Shown: positions 4,595-20,597 of the stretch, in pieces
How positions within the stretch are numbered: position 1 is the first letter of the stretch
How the letters are laid out: each line of letters begins with the position of its first letter
Assembly (NCBI GenBank): GCA_028280515.1
Contig: JANQLP010000162.1
Span: 90,092-141,880, forward strand
Direction: 5' to 3'
Length of the DNA: 51,789 nt
Source: Hyphomicrobiales bacterium
Lineage (GTDB): Bacteria; Pseudomonadota; Alphaproteobacteria; Rhizobiales; Methyloligellaceae
The notes under the pieces: generated by a model
What the model saw: only the letters and a program-made list of their open reading frames with translations
What the model was told of the DNA's origin: nothing
Database searches by the model: none
Made by a program: the position numbers and the translations under genes

Positions 4595-5206
4595 ATGCCG
4601 GACCCGATCGATTGGGGCGTCTCTCTTCCGTACTATCTTGCCGCCCTGGCCGTTGGATATCTGCTGGGCTCCATTCCGTTCGGGCTGATCTTCACCCGAC
4701 TTGCCGGAACGGAAGACATCCGCGAAATCGGCTCGCGCAATATCGGCGCAACCAACGTCTTAAGGACCGGCCATAAAGGACTGGCCGCGCTGACATTGGC
4801 GGCCGACATGCTTAAGGGCACGGCGGCGGCGCTCATCGGCCTGCAGTGGGGACCAGACACAGGCGTCCTCGCGGGCCTCGGCGCCTTCATCGGACATCTC
4901 GCGCCCGTCTGGTTGAAGTTCCGCGGCGGCAAGGGCGTCGCAACCTATATCGGCATCCTGCTCGGTCTTTACTGGCCTGTCGCCGTCGCCTTCTGCGCGG
5001 TCTGGCTGCTTGTCGCCGGTGTGAGCCGCTACTCGTCGCTCGCGGCGTTGGCCGCGTCGGCTGCAACGCCCGCGCTGCTTGCCTATTTCGGGCAATGGCA
5101 GATTGCCGAACTGTTCGTGCTGCTGTCGGTCCTCGTCTACATCCGCCACTGGGCGAACATCCGGCGGCTGATGTCCGGCACGGAGTCGAAGATTGGCCGG
5201 TCCTGA
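4595..5206 (+). CDS. plsY: Acyl-phosphate:glycerol-3-phosphate acyltransferase
   Basis: Integral membrane enzyme that transfers an acyl chain from acyl-phosphate to glycerol-3-phosphate, starting phospholipid synthesis. The three PlsY signature loops are visible: [26 protein letters not shown] and [18 protein letters not shown], separated by hydrophobic helices. The ATG at 4595 (203 residues) follows a GGGGGA stretch 7 bases upstream; an upstream TTG at 4580 is less likely. It follows pyrC' by 60 bases and overlaps the dprA start, so the run is probably one transcript. Confidence 0.95.
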
Positions 5207-6362
5207 ACATGGCGTTGGGTCCGCATGTTCCGGACGTGGCCAGAATTTGGACGACGATGAGCGGCTGGCCTGGCTGAGGCTCATCCGCAGCAACAATGTG
5301 GGCGCGGTCACCTTTCATGAGCTTCTGAGCCATTTCGGCAGCGCGTCCGCGGCAATCGACGCCCTGCCCGATCTCACGCGCGGCGGTGGGCGGCGTGCGG
5401 TCACCGTATGCCCTCCGGACAAGGCGGAGGCGGAGCTCGATCGGGCCACGCAATGGGGCGCCTCTCTGGTGGCTTTCGGAGAGCCGGAATACCCGCCGTG
5501 GCTGGCGCGGGCCGAGGCGCCGCCACCCCTTCTCTACATGAAAGGTGAAACGGAGCTCTTGTCGCAGCCGGTTGTTGCCATTGTCGGATCACGGAACGCA
5601 TCGGCCATCGGCCAGAAATTCACGCGCCGACTCGCGGAGGAGCTCGGCACCCAGGGGTTTATCATCGCGTCCGGTCTTGCGCGCGGCATCGACACGGCGG
5701 CGCACACGGCCGCTTTGGATCGCGGGACCGTCGCGGTGCTGGCAGGAGGCATCGACTCGATCTATCCGCCGGAAAACGAGGAGCTGCATCAGACAATCGG
5801 CATACAAGGCGTTCTTTTGAGCGAAATGCCGTTCGGCTACCGGCAACGGGGCCAGGATTTTCCACGGCGCAACCGGATCATCGCCGGCATCTCCGTCGGC
5901 GTGATCGTCGTCGAGGCGGCGACCCGGTCGGGGTCGCTCATCACGGCCCGGTTGGCCGGCGAGCTTGGTCGGGAGGTCTTTGCCGTCCCCGGCAACCCGC
6001 TGGACCCGCGCGCCGAAGGCACGAACGGACTGTTGCGGGACGGCGCGGGATTGGTGACATGCGCAGACGACGTGCTCCAGACGCTCGCGCCGATCCTCGG
6101 TCAGGATTTCACTGCGGACGATAAACCCCTACAGGATGCGGCCGCGGCACCTCCGAAACCTGCCGCAATCGACGAGCCCGACCGCAAGCAGGTCGTCTCA
6201 GCGCTTGGCCCTTCACCGGTTGATATCGACGAGGTCGTGCGCGTGACCGGCCTGTCCGCACGCCAGGTCCAGATTGTCCTGCTGGAGCTTGATCTCGCGG
6301 GCCGGCTGCAACGCCACGGCGGTCAACTGGTTTCACTGATGAGCAATGGCGACAGGAAATAG
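5193..6362 (+). CDS. dprA: DNA-processing protein DprA
   Basis: Binds incoming single-stranded DNA and loads RecA during natural transformation. The Rossmann-like core (about residues 105-300) shows [49 protein letters not shown], the [12 protein letters not shown] block and [11 protein letters not shown]. The C-terminal 60 residues form a winged-helix-like segment ([30 protein letters not shown] region). The start is uncertain: TTG at 5193 overlaps plsY by 14 bases, and TTG at 5247 is an alternative that fits family N-termini slightly better. DprA is also widespread in bacteria not known to be competent. Confidence 0.93.
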
Positions 6363-6614
6363 CCCTCAGGTTTCGAAAAAACGTCGAAGTCGCAGACAGC
6401 CACGGTCTTGACCTGGGATCAGACGTCCCCATGTCCCGTTCACGAACGTGTCCTCTTCACCAAATTGCAATGGGAAGAATGCATACGGCCAATTGACAGC
6501 AATGATGCGATTCACCATTTTCCTCGTGCCCGAGCGGCGAGTCCCTTGCATCTGGCGGCAAATTCGGTTTAGGGACGCAGACCTCGAATATCGGTGTTTC
6601 CGGAAACGCAATAT

Positions 6615-9203
6615 ATGAACGTTGTCATTGTCGAGTCCCCGGCGAAGGCCAAGACCATCAACAAGTATCTCGGTTCGGGATATCAGGTGCTGGCCTCATA
6701 TGGCCATGTCCGCGACCTGCCGTCCAAGGACGGCTCGGTCAATCCCGACTCCGATTTCGATATGCAATGGGAGGTCGATTCCAAATCGGCCAAACGCCTC
6801 AATGAAATCGCTAAGGCGGTGAAGGGCGCGGAAAAGCTCATCCTCGCCACCGACCCGGACCGCGAGGGCGAAGCGATTTCCTGGCATGTGTTGCAGGTGC
6901 TGGAAAAGAAGAAGGCGCTCAAGGGCGTCGATGTGCAACGTGTCGTCTTCAACGCGGTGACGAAGCAGGCCGTGACGGAAGCCATGGCGCATCCGCGCAC
7001 CATCGACTCGCCGCTCGTCGACGCCTATCTGGCGCGCCGCGCTCTGGATTATCTCGTCGGCTTCACCTTGTCGCCGGTGCTGTGGCGCAAACTGCCGGGC
7101 GCGCGTTCGGCCGGCCGCGTACAGTCGGTTGCCCTGCGCCTCGTCTGCGACCGGGAAGCGGAGATCGAACTCTTCAAGTCGCGCGAATACTGGTCGATCG
7201 AGGCGGGTCTTGCGAACGCCGCAGGCGATGCCTTCGCGGCCCGTCTGGTTGCGGTCGACGGCAACAAGCTCGACCGTTACGACATTCCCGACGAAGCGAC
7301 GGCATCGAAGTACAAGGCGGGTCTCGAAGGCGGCGCCTACACGATCGCCTCGGTTGAAAGCAAGGCCCAGAAACGCAATCCGCAGCCCCCGTTCACCACG
7401 TCGACACTTCAGCAGGAGGCCTCGCGCAAGCTCGGCTTCAGCGCCCGCCACACCATGCAGGTGGCGCAACGCCTCTACGAAGGCATCGATATCGGCGGTA
7501 CGACACAGGGGCTCATCACCTATATGCGGACCGACGGCGTGCAGATGGACCCCGAAGCCATCACCGCCTGCCGCAACATGGTGAACGATACCTTCGGCGC
7601 GACGTACCTTCCGGACAAGCCGCGCGACTACAAGACCAAGGCGAAGAACGCACAGGAGGCCCACGAGGCGATCCGGCCGGTTGATTTCGCAAAGGACCCC
7701 AAGAGCATCGCCGACATGCTCGAGCCCGATCAGGCCAAGCTCTACCGCCTAATCTGGCAGCGCGCCGTAGCGAGCCAGATGTCGAGCGCGGAACTGGAGC
7801 GCACGGTCGCCGAGATCGAGGTTCAGGGCAGCGACGGAACACGGTACGGCCTGCGGGCGAACGGATCCGTCGTCAAGTTTGACGGTTTCCTGAAGCTCTA
7901 CGAGGAAGGCAAGGACGACAGTGGCGAGGGTGACGGCGACCGCCGTCTGCCGGCGCTGGCGCGCGGCGAGACACCGAGCCTCCATTCCGTCGAGGCGAAG
8001 CAGCACTTCACCGAACCGCCGCCGCGCTACACAGAGGCGACCCTCATCAAGAAAATGGAGGAACTGGGTATCGGCCGTCCCTCCACCTACACCTCCACAC
8101 TGAACGTTCTGCGCGACCGTGAATATGTGCGCCTCGACAAGAAACGGCTTATCCCGGAGGACAAGGGCCGTCTGGTCATCGCCTTCCTGGAGAGCTTCTT
8201 CAAACGCTATGTGGAGTTCGATTTCACCGCCGACCTGGAGGAAAAACTTGATCGGATTTCCGCCGGCGAGCTCGAATGGAAGGACGTGCTGCACGATTTC
8301 TGGCGGGACTTTTTTGCGGCGGTCGACGAAATCAAGGATCTGCGCATTTCCGAGGTGCTGGAAGCCCTCAATGAAATGCTTGGGCCGCACATCTTCCCGC
8401 CGGGCGACGATCCGGAGGCCGACCCGCGCAAATGCCCGAGCTGCGAAGACGGGCGCCTGAGCCTCAAGACCGGCAAGTTCGGCGCCTTCATCGGGTGCTC
8501 GAACTATCCCGATTGCCGCTTCACGCGTCAGCTCGCCGAGAGCACCGAAGAAGCGGCAAAGACACCGTCCGGCGAAGGAAAACTGCTTGGCCAGGACCCG
8601 GAGACCAGCCTTGATGTGACCCTGCGGTCCGGTCGGTTCGGCCCCTACGTCCAGCTCGGCGACGCGAATGGCGATGAAAAACCGAAGCGCGCCTCGGTGC
8701 CGAAGACGTTCGATCTCGACACCGTCGATCTGGAGCGCGCGCTGGCGCTACTGTCCCTGCCCCGCGAAGTCGGTCTGCACCCCGAAACCGGCAAGCCCAT
8801 CCTCGCCGGTATCGGCCGCTACGGCCCGTTTGTGCAGCATGACGGCGTGTACGCCAATCTTGACAGCCCCGAAGAGGTCTTCGAGGTCGGCATAAACCGT
8901 GCAGTGACCGCGCTGGCAGAGAAAAAGACCAAGCGTGCGCCACGCCAGGCGACTGTGCTGAAAGACCTCGGCGAGCATCCGGAACTCGGCGGGCCCATAC
9001 AGGTGCTCGACGGTCGCTACGGGCCATATGTCAAGCACGGCAAGGTCAACGCCACGCTGCCGAAATCGCTGGAGCCGAAAGAGGTCACCCTTGATCAGGC
9101 GGTGACCCTGATCGCCGAGCGTGCCGCAAAAGGCAAAGGTGGTTCCAAGGGCGGGTCGAAACGCAAGAAGACAACCGCGGCGGCCAAAGAGGCCGCACCC
9201 TAG
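6615..9203 (+). CDS. topA: DNA topoisomerase I (type IA)
   Basis: Relaxes negatively supercoiled DNA through a transient 5'-phosphotyrosine bond. The Toprim domain shows VESPAKAKTI at the N-terminus and DPDREGEAI. The active-site tyrosine is Tyr303 in TYMRTDG. The C-terminus has one C4 zinc finger (CPSCEDGRL...CSNYPDC), then glycine-rich degenerate finger repeats containing GRFGPYVQLG, GRYGPFVQHDG and GRYGPYVKHGK, then a Lys-rich tail. The ATG at 6615 matches the family start (MNVVIVESPAKAK); the upstream GTG at 6594 would add seven unconserved residues. The protein is 862 residues. The rnr start codon follows its stop directly. Confidence 0.97.
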   Translation: MNVVIVESPAKAKTINKYLGSGYQVLASYGHVRDLPSKDGSVNPDSDFDMQWEVDSKSAKRLNEIAKAVKGAEKLILATDPDREGEAISWHVLQVLEKKKALKGVDVQRVVFNAVTKQAVTEAMAHPRTIDSPLVDAYLARRALDYLVGFTLSPVLWRKLPGARSAGRVQSVALRLVCDREAEIELFKSREYWSIEAGLANAAGDAFAARLVAVDGNKLDRYDIPDEATASKYKAGLEGGAYTIASVESKAQKRNPQPPFTTSTLQQEASRKLGFSARHTMQVAQRLYEGIDIGGTTQGLITYMRTDGVQMDPEAITACRNMVNDTFGATYLPDKPRDYKTKAKNAQEAHEAIRPVDFAKDPKSIADMLEPDQAKLYRLIWQRAVASQMSSAELERTVAEIEVQGSDGTRYGLRANGSVVKFDGFLKLYEEGKDDSGEGDGDRRLPALARGETPSLHSVEAKQHFTEPPPRYTEATLIKKMEELGIGRPSTYTSTLNVLRDREYVRLDKKRLIPEDKGRLVIAFLESFFKRYVEFDFTADLEEKLDRISAGELEWKDVLHDFWRDFFAAVDEIKDLRISEVLEALNEMLGPHIFPPGDDPEADPRKCPSCEDGRLSLKTGKFGAFIGCSNYPDCRFTRQLAESTEEAAKTPSGEGKLLGQDPETSLDVTLRSGRFGPYVQLGDANGDEKPKRASVPKTFDLDTVDLERALALLSLPREVGLHPETGKPILAGIGRYGPFVQHDGVYANLDSPEEVFEVGINRAVTALAEKKTKRAPRQATVLKDLGEHPELGGPIQVLDGRYGPYVKHGKVNATLPKSLEPKEVTLDQAVTLIAERAAKGKGGSKGGSKRKKTTAAAKEAAP

Positions 9204-14255: not shown

Positions 14256-15893
14256 TTACTCCGCCTGTCCCCCGAGCGGTATCCTGATCCGCGCTTTGGC
14301 GCTCCCGCCGCCAGGGCTCGCTGCCAGGTCGAAGCTGACGAGACCAGCGGCCGTGTTGCCGAAGCCGAGTGCGGCGAGCGGCAGGGCCGCGGCCCCCGTC
14401 ACGGACCAACTGTCCAGATCATCCGCGAAGCCGTACCAGTCACCACCGACTGAGAGGACCATTCCACCGAGAAATGCGACTTCGACGCCACCACCCAGGT
14501 TTATCGCCGTGGACGCGTTCGAGATGACGGCACCGCCGGCCACCAGATAGTCGCCGTCATTGACGAAGTCCCAAACGCCATTGATGCGCATAAAGGGTTT
14601 GATTTGCGCATTCTGTCTCTGGATGGTCGTCCCGATCCTGGGGCCGTAGGTGAACCGGCCGAGCTCCAGCTCCGACCCGGCCACGAAAGCTCCCGCGCTG
14701 TCGGTGTAGCTGTCGCGGTCAACCTGTGTGTAGAGCAGGCCTATCGCCGGCTCGATCCAGTACCGCCCGCGCATGATGCGTTTGTCGATGCGGCCTTCCA
14801 CCGTCCACTGGTCGCTGTCGAAGCTCCCTGTCGCGCCTTCTATCGAGATGTCGTTGTCACCGGCCTCGTAGAGCGCTGCACCCGTCAGTCTGACGCCTCC
14901 CGCGAGCGGCGCGCTCACGAACGCACCGCCGCCGTAAAAATCGCTGTCGAGCTTGGCATTTAGCGCATTCGAGTCCACTTCGCCCTCGCGCACCCGCGCA
15001 AAGGCACCGAATGACGCGCCGCTGTCTGTCTGATAGCTGACCCCCGATACGACCGACCACTGATGGCCGTCCCGGTCGGCACCGGCATCGTCATCATCGA
15101 ACTCCGTGTAGCGGCCCGATACCCAGCCGTTCCATGGGCCCTGATAGACCGCTTCGCCATTGCCCCTTCCGTCAAAACCCGAAGCACGGTTCGCATCCTT
15201 CCTGGCCATCATGGACTTCAAGTCAAAGCTGAACTGGAAACTGTCGGACGTCCGCTTGTCGCCGAACGCCGCAAGCCCCGGAGGACCGGACTGGAGACCG
15301 AACGTTTCGCGATAGACATTCGGCGTTGCCGTGCTCGGCACGAACTTCAGCACCTTGTCGCTGGCCGGTTTGTAGGTTCGGGGAACGGCTACCGGGATTT
15401 GGATGCTGTCCAGAATTGAACGGTCGGTTCGCACAAACGTCGAAAAGAGACCGTCCGTCGTCTCTGACTTTTCCCTGGGGGTCGGCGCGACCGTGCAGCT
15501 GATATTCGCGAACGATCCAATAACAAACACGCCGACCTGACCGGGGCCGACGTTGATGACCGCGGGCGACGGCGTGAAGATAGGAGCCCCGCCGCCGGGA
15601 GGCGTGAAACTCACATCATTGGGAGGACCGGCGGGACTGGTGATGGTGATCTGATCGCCGAGAGCAACCGTCAAATTGACGTCGGCTCCCGTATTGAGCA
15701 GTGGCGTCCCGCCCCGAGCCGGGTCAAGTTGCGCGCAAGTGACATTCAGGATCGCCTGAGCCCGGGCATCATCTGCAAGATACACATTGAGCGCGAAGAC
15801 AACGGGAAACACGACGGCTGTGATGACCCACAACACGTATCGTGGTCCCGTCCGCGACATAGATAAATGTCTGTATTGATTGCGTATACGCAT
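14256..15893 (-). CDS. Autotransporter-type outer-membrane beta-barrel protein
   Basis: About 545 residues. The N-terminus has a hydrophobic export signal (VLWVITAVVFPVVFALNVYLA, then an ARAQA cleavage-like site). A short 150-residue region follows with Pro/Gly-rich stretches and only two Cys, then a spacer. The last ~300 residues have alternating hydrophobic strands rich in Gly, Tyr and Trp (GNGEAVYQGPWNGWVSGRYTEF, YGGGAFVSAPLAGGVRLTGAAL, GRYWIEPAIGLLYTQVDRDSY), typical of an autotransporter barrel. The passenger is very small, so it may be a plain surface barrel. The start is unsettled: ATG 15893 has GGGG upstream; ATG 15860 has no visible ribosome site but gives a more normal signal peptide. 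Confidence 0.75.
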   Translation of the reverse strand: MRIRNQYRHLSMSRTGPRYVLWVITAVVFPVVFALNVYLADDARAQAILNVTCAQLDPARGGTPLLNTGADVNLTVALGDQITITSPAGPPNDVSFTPPGGGAPIFTPSPAVINVGPGQVGVFVIGSFANISCTVAPTPREKSETTDGLFSTFVRTDRSILDSIQIPVAVPRTYKPASDKVLKFVPSTATPNVYRETFGLQSGPPGLAAFGDKRTSDSFQFSFDLKSMMARKDANRASGFDGRGNGEAVYQGPWNGWVSGRYTEFDDDDAGADRDGHQWSVVSGVSYQTDSGASFGAFARVREGEVDSNALNAKLDSDFYGGGAFVSAPLAGGVRLTGAALYEAGDNDISIEGATGSFDSDQWTVEGRIDKRIMRGRYWIEPAIGLLYTQVDRDSYTDSAGAFVAGSELELGRFTYGPRIGTTIQRQNAQIKPFMRINGVWDFVNDGDYLVAGGAVISNASTAINLGGGVEVAFLGGMVLSVGGDWYGFADDLDSWSVTGAAALPLAALGFGNTAAGLVSFDLAASPGGGSAKARIRIPLGGQAE

Positions 15894-16246
15894 ACCCAGC
15901 CCCAGATTCTGACTATGGTTGCGGAGTCGAAAGGACGCGGTCAACGTATTGATCACCCCGATAACCGATTTGCATTGGAACTGTGATCAACGTGCAACAG
16001 TAAGACGAAGTCTGCCCAAATATTGAGCACTTCCTGGGTTTGAGGGACCAGCATTTCCGCATTGGATGGCTCTTTGCCGCCTGTCGTGTGCCGTGCATAG
16101 CCCGGCAACACAGCGCGAATCGGTATTCCAGCGCGCAACGGCTGCAACGGGTATCAGTATCGCGGCGCGGCTCGCGGAAGTTTGACTTGGCACCGCAACC
16201 ACGAGCCCCCAGAGTCATTCACAATGGCCAACAGGAGATATCGGAA
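15894..16246. other. Divergent intergenic region, 353 bases
   Basis: Promoter-bearing gap between the divergent autotransporter-like and DUF3500 genes. I see no gene in it. The ribosome site AGGAG (16233-16237) belongs to the DUF3500 gene. The frame upstream of 16247 stays open for 69 codons but has a composition unlike an export signal, so I leave it out. Confidence 0.6.
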
Positions 16247-17270: not shown

Positions 17271-17515
17271 TGCCGCGAAGGCGGCAATCCAGTGCGGACG
17301 TGCCACACGCAACGCTGCTTGCGCCTGGATCCCGGATCGCGCATGGGCATATTGATCACCTCGGCCGCCGCTTGTCCGGGATGACGCTCTAAACCGTCTT
17401 CGTGCCTTTCTTCTCGTCATTCCGGCCCCCGCCTGCGCGGGGGCAGGCTTCAGCCGGAATCCAGTTCAGACGTGCCCCATGCAATGCTGTGAACGCTCTG
17501 GATTCCGACCTTGAA
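17271..17515 (+). repeat. Composite palindromic repeat, left copy (L1-spacer-L2)
   Basis: Two modules of a dispersed palindromic element. L1 (17271-17386) begins with an eroded CGCGAAGGCGG hairpin, passes through GGATCCCGGATC, and ends CCGGGATGACG. A 28-base spacer (17387-17414) follows. L2 starts with CGTCATTCCGG at 17415 and has a CCCCCGCCTGCGCGGGGG hairpin (17426-17443). The module ends are near-inverted (CGTCATTCCGG against CCGGGATGACG), which is MITE- or REP-like. The same order and the same 28-base spacer length recur at 20121-20514 in the same orientation. Confidence 0.8.
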
Positions 17516-18056
17516 AGCGGGCAGAGACGTGCCCGAGCCTCATGATACGCCCAGCTCAACTAACCGCCACTAATGCGTGTAATTCATTGTAAATACGCCC
17601 ATAATTGCTGATTAATTGCGCCCGAAAAGCCACACTCAATAAGAAATCAGCACGCCAAACGGGCGAATTCGGTCACATTTCAGTGCACTTTCTTGTTTGT
17701 GACCGGCACGCGCAGGTAAATTATTGTCAGATAACAAGAATCTACCCCCGAGGCGTGCCGGGATGGCCGTCAACATGCGTCCGGTAACATCTACAGATGG
17801 CTTGACAGCGGCTGTATATCCATTTGAACCTGCTTTCCTGACAGCGACACGCATTGTCAATGGAGTGCGCGGCATCAATCGGGTTTGTTATGATTACACA
17901 TCTAAACCTCCCGGAACGATTGAGTGGGAATAGTTCTCAAAAATACTAAAGGGAATCCGGCCTCTTAAGATTTCTGTCTTTTCTTTTGGCAAATCAGCGC
18001 GCAAATCTGTCGGCTCTATAATTATTTTATAAAAATATCATATAAATGCTTCAAAA
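17516..18056. other. AT-rich junction around the guaA fragment
   Basis: Between the left composite repeat and the formyltransferase gene the composition falls from the high G+C of the host to clearly AT-rich sequence. Apart from the guaA fragment I see no gene. A TATAAT at 18017-18022, 35 bases before the ATG at 18057, is a possible -10 element for the two island genes; no matching -35 is spaced correctly. No tRNA end, integrase or long direct repeat of the guaA end was found on the other side of the insert. Confidence 0.55.
17724..17933 (+). pseudogene. 3'-terminal fragment of guaA (GMP synthase)
   Basis: The frame ends with the C-terminus of GMP synthase. From about 17763 it reads [12 protein letters not shown]..., then [15 protein letters not shown] and [10 protein letters not shown], then TAG (stop 17931-17933). 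These match the last ~55 residues of GuaA (R-x-V-T-S-T-D-G, then a R-I-I-N-E-V-x-G-I-N/S-R-V-x-Y-D-type core and the final K-P-P-x-T-I-E-W-E). Nothing of the ATPase or glutaminase domains precedes it; the 13 codons before 17763 are unrelated. The fragment is less G+C-rich than the flanks by eye. The 3' end of guaA is a known insertion point of genomic islands, and an AT-rich segment starts right behind it. Confidence 0.8.
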
Positions 18057-18764
18057 ATGAAAGTCGCTATCCTTACAACAAACACATTGCATCATGCTTA
18101 TTTTGTGAAATGTTTAAATGAGTTAGATATTACGCTTTATGTGTTTGAAGAGAAAGAATCCGTTCAACCTCCTTTTAAAACATCTCACCCTTTCGAGGCC
18201 GAGAGAGATGTTTATGAGCAGCACTTTTGGTTCAGTGATAAGTCTTCTTCCATTCATGATTATGCAGAAACTCAGAGTTTTAAAAATATCAACGATAAAG
18301 AATTTAGTGACGCTATTCGGCACTATAATCCTGATTTAAGTATCGCCTTTGGAACCAGAAAATTAGCAAGAGAGACGATTAACAGTTGTGGTTATATTCT
18401 CAACCTACATGGCGGTGACCCACAAGCTTATCGAGGTTTAGATACACATCTTTGGGCCATTTATCATGGGGATTATGATAATCTAAAAACCTCCCTTCAT
18501 ATTTTAGATGATCAATTAGATACAGGTGATATTGTCGATATAGCGGCTCTTTCAATACAACCCAATATGCCGTTAACAGAACTTCGCGCCAGAAATACCG
18601 AAACCTGCGTAAATTTATGCAAGTCCGCTTTAAATACATTAAAACAAAAAGGATTCATTAAGACTTCACCTCAAGAGCAAAAAGGGCGATATTATTCGTT
18701 CATGCCACCACAATTAAAAGAATTATGCGTTCAAAAATTCGCAAATTACACGAAGAACTTATAA
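18057..18764 (+). CDS. Formyltransferase-fold protein (putative sugar N-formyltransferase)
   Basis: A 235-residue protein with the formyl-transferase N-terminal fold. The sequence LNLHGGDPQAYRGLDTHLWA carries the catalytic Asn116 and His118, and LDTGDIV supplies the expected Asp155. Such enzymes move a formyl group from N10-formyltetrahydrofolate to methionyl-tRNA, a nucleotide or an amino-sugar. This one lacks the C-terminal tRNA-binding domain of Fmt, so an amino-sugar acceptor is more likely (inference). Composition is strongly AT-rich, unlike the host genes. The deacetylase begins directly after its stop; the pair suggests modification of a surface glycan. I cannot name the substrate. Confidence 0.75.
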   Translation: MKVAILTTNTLHHAYFVKCLNELDITLYVFEEKESVQPPFKTSHPFEAERDVYEQHFWFSDKSSSIHDYAETQSFKNINDKEFSDAIRHYNPDLSIAFGTRKLARETINSCGYILNLHGGDPQAYRGLDTHLWAIYHGDYDNLKTSLHILDDQLDTGDIVDIAALSIQPNMPLTELRARNTETCVNLCKSALNTLKQKGFIKTSPQEQKGRYYSFMPPQLKELCVQKFANYTKNL

Positions 18765-19670
18765 GTGAATTATACAGAATTCCTTACCGACAACACCTAT
18801 GCCATTTACCTGCTACATGGCGTACATAAGAATGCGGAAACCAAGGTTAGAAATTATACGCGTAAACATATTCCTGATACGGATTTTATAGCCTTCCTGA
18901 AAACACTCCTTGAGGCTGGTGGGACACCAGTTTCTATGGATGATATTGTGAACGCTAAAATAGAAGGTAGAGCTTTACCTCCAAAATCTTTCGCAATTAC
19001 TTTTGATGATGGATTTGAAAATAATCTAACCGTTGCGGCGCCTATCTTGGAATCCTTGAATATTCCTGCAACTTATTACATTACAACAGATTTTATAGAT
19101 CAAAATCGCATGTCATGGATTGACCGCATAGAACTGGTTGTGGAAGAATCACCTGTAGAAAAACTATCCCTTCCCTGGGGAGAAGAAAGCTTCAAAAATA
19201 TTGAGGAAAAACGGCGTTTTCTAGACAATGTCAGACTGCATGTTAAAACAACGCCATCCCTCAACCCAGATGAAATTGCAACACAGATACAAAATCAACT
19301 TGGCTTTGATGAAATCTGGTCTAGCACGCATCCACTTGATCAAAAGTTAAATTGGTCACAGGTCAAAGAACTTTCCAAAATTCAAGGCAGTACCATTGGC
19401 GGACATACACATACACATCCGATTATGTCTTATCTAAATGATAACGATTTGAGTTATGAAATTGATCACAGCCTGATTTTACTCAAAGAAAAAGGCCAAT
19501 TACGTCATATAAATCATTATTCTTATCCGGAAGGGTTAGAGCATTGTTATAACCAAAAAGTTATAGATGCACTCAAGCAACGCAATATCGTATGTAGCCC
19601 TTCAGCTATTCATGGTATTAATGATAAAAAAGTTGATCTATTTAACTTACTCAGAGTCACGGTCACCTAA
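18765..19670 (+). CDS. Polysaccharide deacetylase (NodB-type), AT-rich island gene
   Basis: A 301-residue carbohydrate esterase 4-type domain. FAITFDDGF (Asp81-Asp82 pair) is motif 1, GGHTHTHP (His214 and His218, metal ligands) is motif 2, and HYSYPEG near residue 250 is motif 3. The family removes acetyl groups from N-acetylated sugars. No signal peptide is seen, so it is likely cytoplasmic and acts on an intermediate rather than a finished envelope polymer (inference). The GTG start follows the upstream TAA with no gap, so the two genes are translationally coupled. Codon use is AT-rich, as in its partner. Confidence 0.85.
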   Translation: MNYTEFLTDNTYAIYLLHGVHKNAETKVRNYTRKHIPDTDFIAFLKTLLEAGGTPVSMDDIVNAKIEGRALPPKSFAITFDDGFENNLTVAAPILESLNIPATYYITTDFIDQNRMSWIDRIELVVEESPVEKLSLPWGEESFKNIEEKRRFLDNVRLHVKTTPSLNPDEIATQIQNQLGFDEIWSSTHPLDQKLNWSQVKELSKIQGSTIGGHTHTHPIMSYLNDNDLSYEIDHSLILLKEKGQLRHINHYSYPEGLEHCYNQKVIDALKQRNIVCSPSAIHGINDKKVDLFNLLRVTVT

Positions 19671-20120
19671 CCCCTCTTAAACCAAGCCCTTCCTTCATCC
19701 ACATAATAAACTACACGCCCACCACAATTTTCGATATAGATATTAGTGATCAAACACGATTATCAATAGTTTTGACATATGTCTGAGGCATCTGGCGACC
19801 TGATCGCTTGTTCTGCTTTGTCTGGCAATCATGAACAGCGGCGCGCAGACTGGCGCCTTCAACTTCGACGTCGCGCCGCAGCCGACCTGTCCCTGATACT
19901 GCCGTCCTTTTACCGCCTCAGGGGGAAGCTTCGGCGCCCCCTTCTTCTTTGCAGGACCGAAGTATCACAACCCTGTACATGATCCATTCCGTGACCTGTC
20001 TAATCGGCGAACTGCCAATGGAGTGGACCCCCGGACTGAATCGGGGGGTGACGGAAAGAACGAAGGACGTCGAGTCACGTATTGGATGGGATGACGGTTA
20101 TCGTCGCCTTGCCCCAACAT
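19671..20120. other. Right flank of the AT-rich insert
   Basis: AT-rich sequence continues to about 19780 and then returns to host-like composition. I see no intact gene. On the minus strand a short open tail of about 28 codons (19667-19752, reading NIYIENCGGRVVYYVDEGRA near its end) has a protein-like composition, and its stop overlaps the deacetylase stop. It may be a truncated gene. A hairpin with GGGGG...CCCCC arms at 19921-19941 is followed by a pyrimidine-rich run, and could be a weak terminator on the plus strand. Confidence 0.4.
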
Positions 20121-20514
20121 CGTCATTCCGGCGAACGCCGGAATCCAGTGCGGACGTGCCATACAGAACGCTGCCGGGTTCTGGATCCCGGATCGCGGGC
20201 CGGGTCGAACGCAGTACCACACCTGCCGCCGTGGCCGTCCCTTGTCCGGGATGACGATCTAAACCGTCTTTGTGTCTTTCTTATCGTCATTCTGGCCCCC
20301 GCCTGCGCGGGAGCCGGCTTCAGAGGCGGCATCAAAACAAGGAGCCGAAATTTCCGCGAAGGCGGGAATCCGCATCAGAAGCTCATGCGATGAACTGCCG
20401 GATCCCGGATCACATGACGCGCTTTCAGCGCGCACTGTCCGGGAGTTCAAACATGGGCGGATTGCAGACATGGACGTAGCAGGCCCACAAGGCCGCCGCT
20501 TGTCCGGGATGAGG
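20121..20514 (+). repeat. Composite palindromic repeat, right copy (R1-spacer-R2)
   Basis: R1 (20121-20256) runs from CGTCATTCCGG to CCGGGATGACG, which are inverted at 10 of 11 bases, and contains the CGGCGAACGCCG hairpin, GAATCCAGTGCGGACGTGCC and GGATCCCGGATC. A 28-base spacer (20257-20284) follows, matching the left spacer at about 24 of 28 positions. R2 (20285-20514) begins CGTCATTCTGG, contains a second TTCCGCGAAGGCGGGAATCC module and ends CCGGGATGAGG. Homology to the left copy is clearest over L1/R1 and the start of L2/R2. Orientation is the same as the left copy. Confidence 0.8.
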
Positions 20515-20597
20515 CGTCCGTCTCCGGTAACGCTTGACTTCCCCTGCTTTCCCGGTAGGTTCCTGCTCACTTCACGAGATCCCGAAGGACCTTCGAC

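What the first reader, a model, noticed from the sequence alone, without database searches (positions are those of the whole stretch)
17763..17933. A 3' fragment of guaA sits at the edge of an AT-rich insert
The last ~55 codons of GMP synthase, including the terminal [13 protein letters not shown], occur without the rest of the gene, and an AT-rich two-gene segment begins about 120 bases later. guaA 3' ends are known integration points of genomic islands that use a dedicated integrase. A fragment here suggests that an element that carried a guaA end, or excised imprecisely from one, was moved into this locus. That differs from ordinary integration, because the host guaA is not at this site.
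Basis: partly seen in the sequence, partly recalled or inferred. Interest (0 to 1): 0.72.

Follow-up and report, generated by a model that had tools for sequence, protein, structure and literature searches.

The report
Foreign guaA tail with two genes
A 2,008-base piece of another bacterium's chromosome, beginning in the tail of its guaA gene and carrying two sugar-modifying genes, sits exactly inside the first codons of a surface-protein gene in this alphaproteobacterium; it looks like foreign DNA captured by chance rather than a self-moving island.

Summary
The guaA 3' fragment is real (PF00958, 62.9 bits) and foreign: the genome's own intact guaA lies on another contig, and the fragment is 69% identical to it but 83% to another class member. 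The fragment is the left end of the AT-rich insert, not something beside it. A paralogous leader in the same genome gives the ends: the left flank stops at 17773 and the right flank resumes at 19782 at the very next paralog base. So 2,008 bp sit in codon 4 of a relic beta-helix/inverse-autotransporter gene, without target duplication or loss, without integrase, and without the guaA att core at either end. The insert carries the guaA tail, a formyltransferase and a polysaccharide deacetylase that keep 60 of 60 highly conserved columns. The same order with a complete guaA is native in one Rhodospirillales genome (L059). Best reading: passive capture of donor DNA. Five of 82 other class genomes with a match hold extra guaA tails; in two of the four whose neighbours were scanned these are defence- or toxin-type genes, so a guaA-tail cassette remains a live rival. 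Ordinary gene transfer with an unusually clean scar.

The parts
17563..17762 (+). Leader of a host beta-helix / inverse-autotransporter gene family (shared with three other genes of the same genome)
   Evidence: Local alignments to L010, L011, L012; 75-77% DNA identity; two of the three encoded proteins were scanned and match PF13229, PF05048 and PF11924
17763..17773 (+). Start of the relic beta-helix gene, ATGGCCGTCAA; last host base on the left is 17773 (17772 by paralogs L010 and L011)
   Evidence: Alignment to L012 stops at paralog offset 230
17774..19781 (+). The insert, 2,008 bp, without target duplication or loss against paralog L012
   Evidence: Left flank ends and right flank resumes at the same paralog offset, 230; empty site shown
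17775..17933 (+). 3' end of a foreign guaA (GMP synthase C-terminal domain), 52 codons to the stop, in frame with the host ATG at 17763
   Evidence: PF00958 37-92; alignment A7; closest to G137, 83%
17922..17929 (+). Single GAGTGGGA, the published core of guaA-integrating islands; internal, not at an insert end
   Evidence: Pattern search: 2 in the window, 1.4 expected by chance; core from PMC9376610 (passages)
18057..18764 (+). Formyltransferase family protein, 235 aa
   Evidence: PF00551, E 5.6e-11; highly conserved columns kept
18765..19670 (+). Polysaccharide deacetylase family protein, 301 aa, GTG start
   Evidence: PF01522, E 3.7e-15; highly conserved columns kept
19671..19781 (-). Tail of the insert, 37% G+C; on the minus strand an open stretch ending ...VDEGRAWFKRG-stop, possibly the cut 3' end of a neighbouring donor gene
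   Evidence: Translation; no match in Pfam, in plasmids, or in the loci then held other than copies of the window itself
19782..19820 (+). Continuation of the relic beta-helix gene; reads LRHLAT-stop, so the gene is also broken by a TGA
   Evidence: Alignment to L012, score 55 against a maximum of 29 in 500 shuffles

Best explanation
The fragment is the left edge of a 2,008-bp piece of chromosomal DNA from another alphaproteobacterium (or relative) in which a formyltransferase and a polysaccharide deacetylase gene lie directly downstream of guaA. The piece was joined into the host chromosome in codon 4 of a beta-helix/inverse-autotransporter gene by end joining or illegitimate recombination, not by an island integrase. 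Shown: the foreign guaA tail, the exact ends, no target duplication, no integrase among the insert's scanned ORFs, the native order guaA-formyltransferase-deacetylase in one Rhodospirillales genome, and conserved positions kept in both cargo genes. Inferred: the donor lineage, the joining mechanism, that the pair is now read from the host gene's leader (the genes run in its direction), and that it acts on nonulosonic-acid-type or related surface sugars by removing an N-acetyl and adding an N-formyl group. The guaA tail itself probably does nothing.
For: Reciprocal ends at paralog offset 230 on both sides, right-flank alignment score 55 against at most 29 in 500 shuffles. Fragment 69% identical to host guaA but 83% to G137. 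G+C is 32-38% from the guaA stop to the right end, against about 56-63% beyond the leader and right of the insert; the host leader itself has 43-47% and the guaA tail 48%. Complete guaA, formyltransferase, deacetylase in this order in L059. 46 of 80 deacetylase loci have the formyltransferase directly upstream. The window pair's sister in the tree is L050, a 39% G+C alphaproteobacterial locus (support 0.905). In 100 relatives searched with window DNA 17700-19700, 51 matched, all in the guaA part only (at most 3 candidates scored per genome). The host has three NeuB-type genes.
Against: No donor with near-identical DNA was found; best deacetylase identity is 53%, so the donor order is inferred from L059, whose pair is not the closest relative in the tree. 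Of the other pair loci read, only L075 also has a guaA nearby. No Ku match in the genome, so classical two-ended end joining is probably not available. Other class genomes have guaA tails of similar length beside unrelated genes, which a purely random chunk does not predict.
Confidence: 0.62

Rival explanations
1. A guaA-tail cassette: a recurrent small unit made of a guaA 3' end plus cargo, without its own integrase, which normally accumulates behind guaA (by homologous recombination through the tail or by an integrase acting in trans at GAGTGGGA) and here landed at another site.
For: 5 of the 82 other class genomes with a match carry extra guaA tails: G178, G101, G156 (two, in series), G186, G111. 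Nine ORFs beside the tails of G178, G101, G156 and G111 were scanned: a MauJ-domain protein, a D12 methylase with a ParB-like and a marginal Mrr-like gene, a PIN-domain protein, a PDC-S32 defence candidate, SNF2/helicase pieces and an FAA hydrolase; none is an integrase. The G178 tail starts within about 2 nt of the same guaA position as the window tail (codon 462), and the G111 tail, like this one, is not on the contig of its guaA.
Against: The tail starts are not fixed: about codons 443, 451-459, 455-461, 462, 473, 484. The window unit has a guaA tail on one side only. No second copy of this unit is known. The L059 pair behind guaA has no guaA tail after it. The region of G186 was not scanned for cargo, and no control with another core gene was run.
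Confidence: 0.27
2. Remnant of an ordinary guaA-integrating island (GIsul2 type) that inserted at a secondary site and lost its integrase.
For: guaA 3' ends are the site of such islands, and use of less specific sites is reported (PMC9376610, passages).
Against: The insert ends are not at the GAGTGGGA core; the core lies 148 bp inside the left end and is absent from the right end and from the target. No integrase among the scanned ORFs.
Confidence: 0.04
3. Transposition by an element with terminal repeats.
For: The ends read CATGCGTC... and, reverse-complemented, CATATGTC... (6 of 12 bases equal).
Against: That similarity or more arises in 7% of random pairs; no transposase among the scanned ORFs; no target duplication.
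Confidence: 0.03
4. Assembly chimera.
For: The genome is in 253 contigs with 2.36% estimated contamination.
Against: A chance misjoin would not resume the same host gene at the next base on the other side.
Confidence: 0.03

Closest known systems
GIsul2-family genomic islands integrated at the guaA 3' end (PMC9376610, passages read)
   Same: A guaA 3' end is involved; the core GAGTGGGA is present in the fragment
   Different: No integrase seen, insert ends not at the core, not located at the host guaA, 2 kb instead of about 15 kb
Horizontal capture of non-homologous DNA by illegitimate recombination (general concept, recalled; one search gave listings only)
   Same: Foreign chromosomal piece, no target duplication, no mobility gene seen
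   Different: No target bases lost, ends exact against a paralog; no microhomology that I could assign
Formyltransferase + polysaccharide deacetylase pair of nonulosonic-acid-type sugar clusters (L030, L033, L050, L061; neighbours named by eye)
   Same: Same two families, same order, conserved positions kept
   Different: Here outside any sugar cluster, as in L059
cis-mobilizable elements (CIMEs; recalled, not looked up)
   Same: Integrase-less unit associated with an attachment gene end
   Different: Only one att-like side present here

Membership tests
guaA-integrating genomic island (GIsul2 type) | Carries its own site-specific integrase | tested here: not met
   The insert's three main ORFs are the guaA tail, PF00551 and PF01522 (smaller overlapping ORFs not scanned); seven ORFs around the insert scanned, none a recombinase
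guaA-integrating genomic island (GIsul2 type) | Ends at the GAGTGGGA core, repeated on both sides | tested here: not met
   One core in the insert, internal, at 17922-17929; none at the right end (exact search)
guaA-integrating genomic island (GIsul2 type) | Located at the host guaA | tested here: not met
   Host guaA is on G000:C196, the window on C85
Transposon or insertion sequence | Transposase and terminal inverted repeats, usually target duplication | tested here: not met
   No transposase among scanned ORFs, no duplication, terminal similarity at chance level
guaA-tail cassette (pattern described here) | guaA 3' end of about 30-75 codons followed by cargo | tested here: met
   52 codons, then two co-directional genes
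guaA-tail cassette (pattern described here) | Fixed start of the tail, or a tail on both sides | tested here: not met
   Tail starts vary between genomes; only one tail here
Formyltransferase-deacetylase pair | Both genes adjacent with conserved positions kept | tested here: met
   60 of 60 columns with at least 95% conservation kept; 46 of 80 loci paired
Formyltransferase-deacetylase pair | Enzyme activity on an N-acetylated sugar | not testable with these tools
   Needs biochemistry

The most novel reading that the evidence does not exclude
Alphaproteobacteria carry a class of small integrase-less gene cassettes, each marked by a guaA 3' end of about 30-75 codons, which stack behind guaA with defence genes and toxins among their cargo and occasionally land elsewhere; the window insert is such a cassette with a sugar-modification cargo at an ectopic site.
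Probability: 0.25. Interest if true: 0.68.

Novelty: new member of a known kind. Interest (0 to 1): 0.4.

Why it matters
As capture of donor DNA it is a clean scar of gene transfer with both ends known to the base, in a genome where no Ku match was found, and it brings a two-gene sugar-modification module to a bacterium that already has nonulosonic-acid-type synthase genes. If the guaA-tail pattern holds, guaA tails become a search handle for small integrase-less cassettes in Alphaproteobacteria, some with defence genes, that island finders relying on an integrase would miss.

Tried and rejected
Viral and plasmid carriage of the cargo: pattern scans of viral contigs found no relative of either protein; the formyltransferase has one weak match among phage records and one among plasmids; the deacetylase has none among phages and 18 plasmid records, all under 60% identity, 3 covering at least 80%. 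guaA ends in phage records: 15 records match the last 120 residues, 14 of them over at least 80% of the query; plasmids gave 308 records; neither was informative. Viral contigs with guaA ends: 24 loci, 20 with guaA longer than about 110 residues; of the four short ones, three begin at a contig end and one (L209) lies in a provirus whose ORFs near it showed no recognised integrase.

Phylum sample: the formyltransferase at E <= 1e-20 was found in 2 of 398 genomes, this one included, so the pair is rare.

Relatives with the empty site: in 6 of the 29 family relatives that matched rpmG-pleD the region was fetched; in 6 of 6 the DNA match to the window begins only at 20523 or later, so the insert site and the DUF3500 gene before it have no counterpart there. 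The empty site is shown by paralogs only.

Selection on the fragment: its log-likelihood against 29 guaA tails is -62.4 (leave-one-out range -44.6 to -23.6; host guaA -34.3), which suggests relaxed constraint; but positions 1-3 are near the junction, the deletion is counted in two columns, and the 29 were the best matches to the fragment, so the test is weak. A smaller version with 8 reference rows showed no excess: 3 deviating columns, as many as in one full gene.

Terminal repeats: chance level. Promoter scan: no site in the leader, and fewer sites than in shuffles. Tail gene: unidentified. An alignment of the wrong stretch of L002 and one without turning L002 and L004 were discarded and redone. 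The blastn had no input files and was redone.

Full report
What was checked. The open frame 17763-17933 matches the GMP synthase C-terminal domain (PF00958 positions 37-92, 62.9 bits; NF000848 positions 456-512). The genome (5.41 Mb, 253 contigs) has one other match at E <= 0.001, a complete 515-aa guaA on contig C196; the window lies on C85. The class is Alphaproteobacteria by inference: contigs of unnamed 'same class' genomes have the same lengths as named alphaproteobacterial records.

The fragment is foreign. It is 69% identical to the host GuaA but 83% and 81% to GuaA of two other class members (G137, G213). It shares with G137 the stretches PFEPAFL and DYTSKPPG. Against 29 class GuaA tails it scores below all of them, which hints at relaxed constraint, but that test is weak and a smaller one showed nothing.

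Where the insert begins and ends. DNA upstream of the fragment, about 17563-17773, matches the leaders of three other genes of this genome (L011, L012, L010; 75-77% identity), whose aligned reading frames start MAV or MAF. Two of the three proteins were scanned and match right-handed beta-helix and inverse-autotransporter models. Local alignment to paralog L012 ends on the left at window 17773, paralog offset 230, and resumes on the right at window 19782, again offset 230; with L011 both ends lie at offset 234 (17772 and 19781); with L010 they lie 3 bases apart. The right match to L012 scores 55, against at most 29 in 500 shuffles of the same stretch. The joined flanks read TGGGATGGCCGTCAATCTGAGGCATCTGGCGACCTG, as in L012. 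So the insert is 17774-19781 to within a base or two, 2,008 bp, with no target duplication and no target loss. The host gene is broken further by a TGA seven codons after the junction.

What it carries. After the guaA stop and 123 bases come a formyltransferase family gene (PF00551) and a polysaccharide deacetylase family gene (PF01522), then 111 bases with an unidentified minus-strand open stretch. G+C is 32% between guaA and the formyltransferase, 36-38% in the rest, 48% in the guaA tail, 43-47% in the host leader, and about 56-63% farther out. The two genes keep 60 of 60 columns that are at least 95% conserved in 50 related rows (one locus is in that set twice, as L043 and L146).

The pair elsewhere. 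Of 385 class genomes, 7 have the deacetylase at E <= 1e-20, this genome included; in all 6 others the formyltransferase lies directly upstream and no guaA is in the stretch read. A one-pattern scan of 84,980 species genomes gave 299 relatives, of which the best 80 were kept; 46 of 80 have the formyltransferase directly upstream (these 80 include the six just named). In a phylum sample the formyltransferase was found at E <= 1e-20 in 2 of 398 genomes, this one included. Of 200 genomes around that of L059, 8 have the deacetylase; the only one of them with guaA beside it is L059's own. Neighbouring genes in L030, L033, L050 and L061 look like NeuB-type synthases, cytidylyltransferases and sugar amidotransferases (named by eye). 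The proposed chemistry, deacetylation then N-formylation, is inference. This genome has three NeuB matches on C109 but no second deacetylase of this type at E <= 1e-20.

The gene order that explains the fragment. Two of the 80 loci hold a complete guaA within the flank read. In L059 (Rhodospirillales bacterium HXMU1429-12) the order is guaA, formyltransferase, deacetylase, then an NnrU-family gene, with no recombinase recognised by eye among the listed ORFs and no guaA tail after the deacetylase. In L075 (SAR86) a NeuB-like gene, the formyltransferase and the deacetylase follow guaA. In a tree of 50 rows plus the window, the window's sister is L050, an uncultured alphaproteobacterium with 39% G+C (support 0.905); the next group (support 0.49) holds other low-G+C loci, alphaproteobacterial except one Neomarinimicrobiota; L059 and L075 lie elsewhere. 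The pair has therefore probably come to lie behind guaA more than once.

Mechanism. The scanned ORFs of the insert and seven ORFs around it are no integrase or transposase. The published core of guaA-integrating islands, GAGTGGGA (PMC9376610, passages read), occurs once, inside the fragment, and not at the insert ends. No Ku match was found in this genome (98% complete); of 14 control genomes only Bacillus subtilis gave one. In 100 relatives searched with window DNA 17700-19700, 51 matched, in the guaA part only, 17776-17936 (at most 3 candidates scored per genome). Passive capture of donor DNA by an illegitimate event fits best; how the ends were joined is not shown.

A competing pattern. A search with the fragment gave a match in 83 of 115 class genomes, this one included. 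In 5 of the 82 others there are further guaA tails: G178, G101, G156 (two in series), G186 (3' end altered) and G111 (on another contig than its guaA). Their DNA is 87-95% identical to the same genome's guaA end. They start at about codons 462, 451-459, 473 and 484, 443, and 455-461 respectively. Nine ORFs beside four of these (not G186) were scanned: a MauJ-domain protein (G178); a D12 methylase, a ParB-like gene and a marginal Mrr-like gene (G101); a PIN-domain protein and a PDC-S32 defence candidate, E 3.1e-47 (G156); SNF2/helicase pieces and an FAA hydrolase (G111). The window's own two cargo genes match no defence model. The window insert has the same build, a guaA tail followed by cargo, and its tail starts within about two bases of the G178 tail. 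But the starts vary, the window has a tail on one side only, and no control with another core gene was run. I put the cassette reading at about a quarter. Searches for guaA islands, guaA hotspots and tandem guaA islands (listings only) showed no paper whose title or abstract start describes such cassettes; that is no proof of absence.

Verdict. A real, foreign guaA tail at the left end of a precisely bounded 2,008-bp insert; most likely ordinary, passively captured donor DNA.

Noticed in passing
L185:4515-4676, L186:6178-6370, L187:3665-3766 and 4865-4990, L188:4204-4420, L189:4528-4702: Extra guaA 3' ends in 5 of the 82 other class genomes with a match, four behind the full guaA and one on another contig; restriction-modification-like, PIN and defence-candidate genes lie beside those of G101 and G156, and no integrase was among the nine ORFs scanned.
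   Followed up: partly
L059:3487-6879 and L075:2813-6957: Sugar-modification genes lie directly downstream of complete guaA genes in a Rhodospirillales and a SAR86 genome, in separate branches of the pair's tree.
   Followed up: partly
L010:426-2411, L011:4655-6865, L012:3516-5501 and 6277-8442: A family of beta-helix proteins with an inverse-autotransporter domain and similar leaders, several copies in this genome, two side by side on contig C95.
   Followed up: partly
window 17275-17513 and 20131-20515; L011 3765-4271; L012 3195-3405: An interspersed intergenic repeat (like CGTCATTCCGG...GCGGGAATCC) lies on both sides of the insert site and beside the beta-helix paralogs.
   Followed up: no
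window 19782-19900: After the junction the host gene reads LRHLAT-stop-SLVLLCLAIMNSGAQTGAFNFDVAPQP, a signal-peptide-like stretch that departs from the beta-helix paralogs.
   Followed up: no
G000:C109:84408-112559 (L150-L152): Three NeuB-type genes within 28 kb, so the host may make more than one nonulosonic-acid-type sugar.
   Followed up: no
window 14256-15956, minus strand: An autotransporter beta-domain protein (PF03797) close to the relic inverse-autotransporter gene.
   Followed up: no
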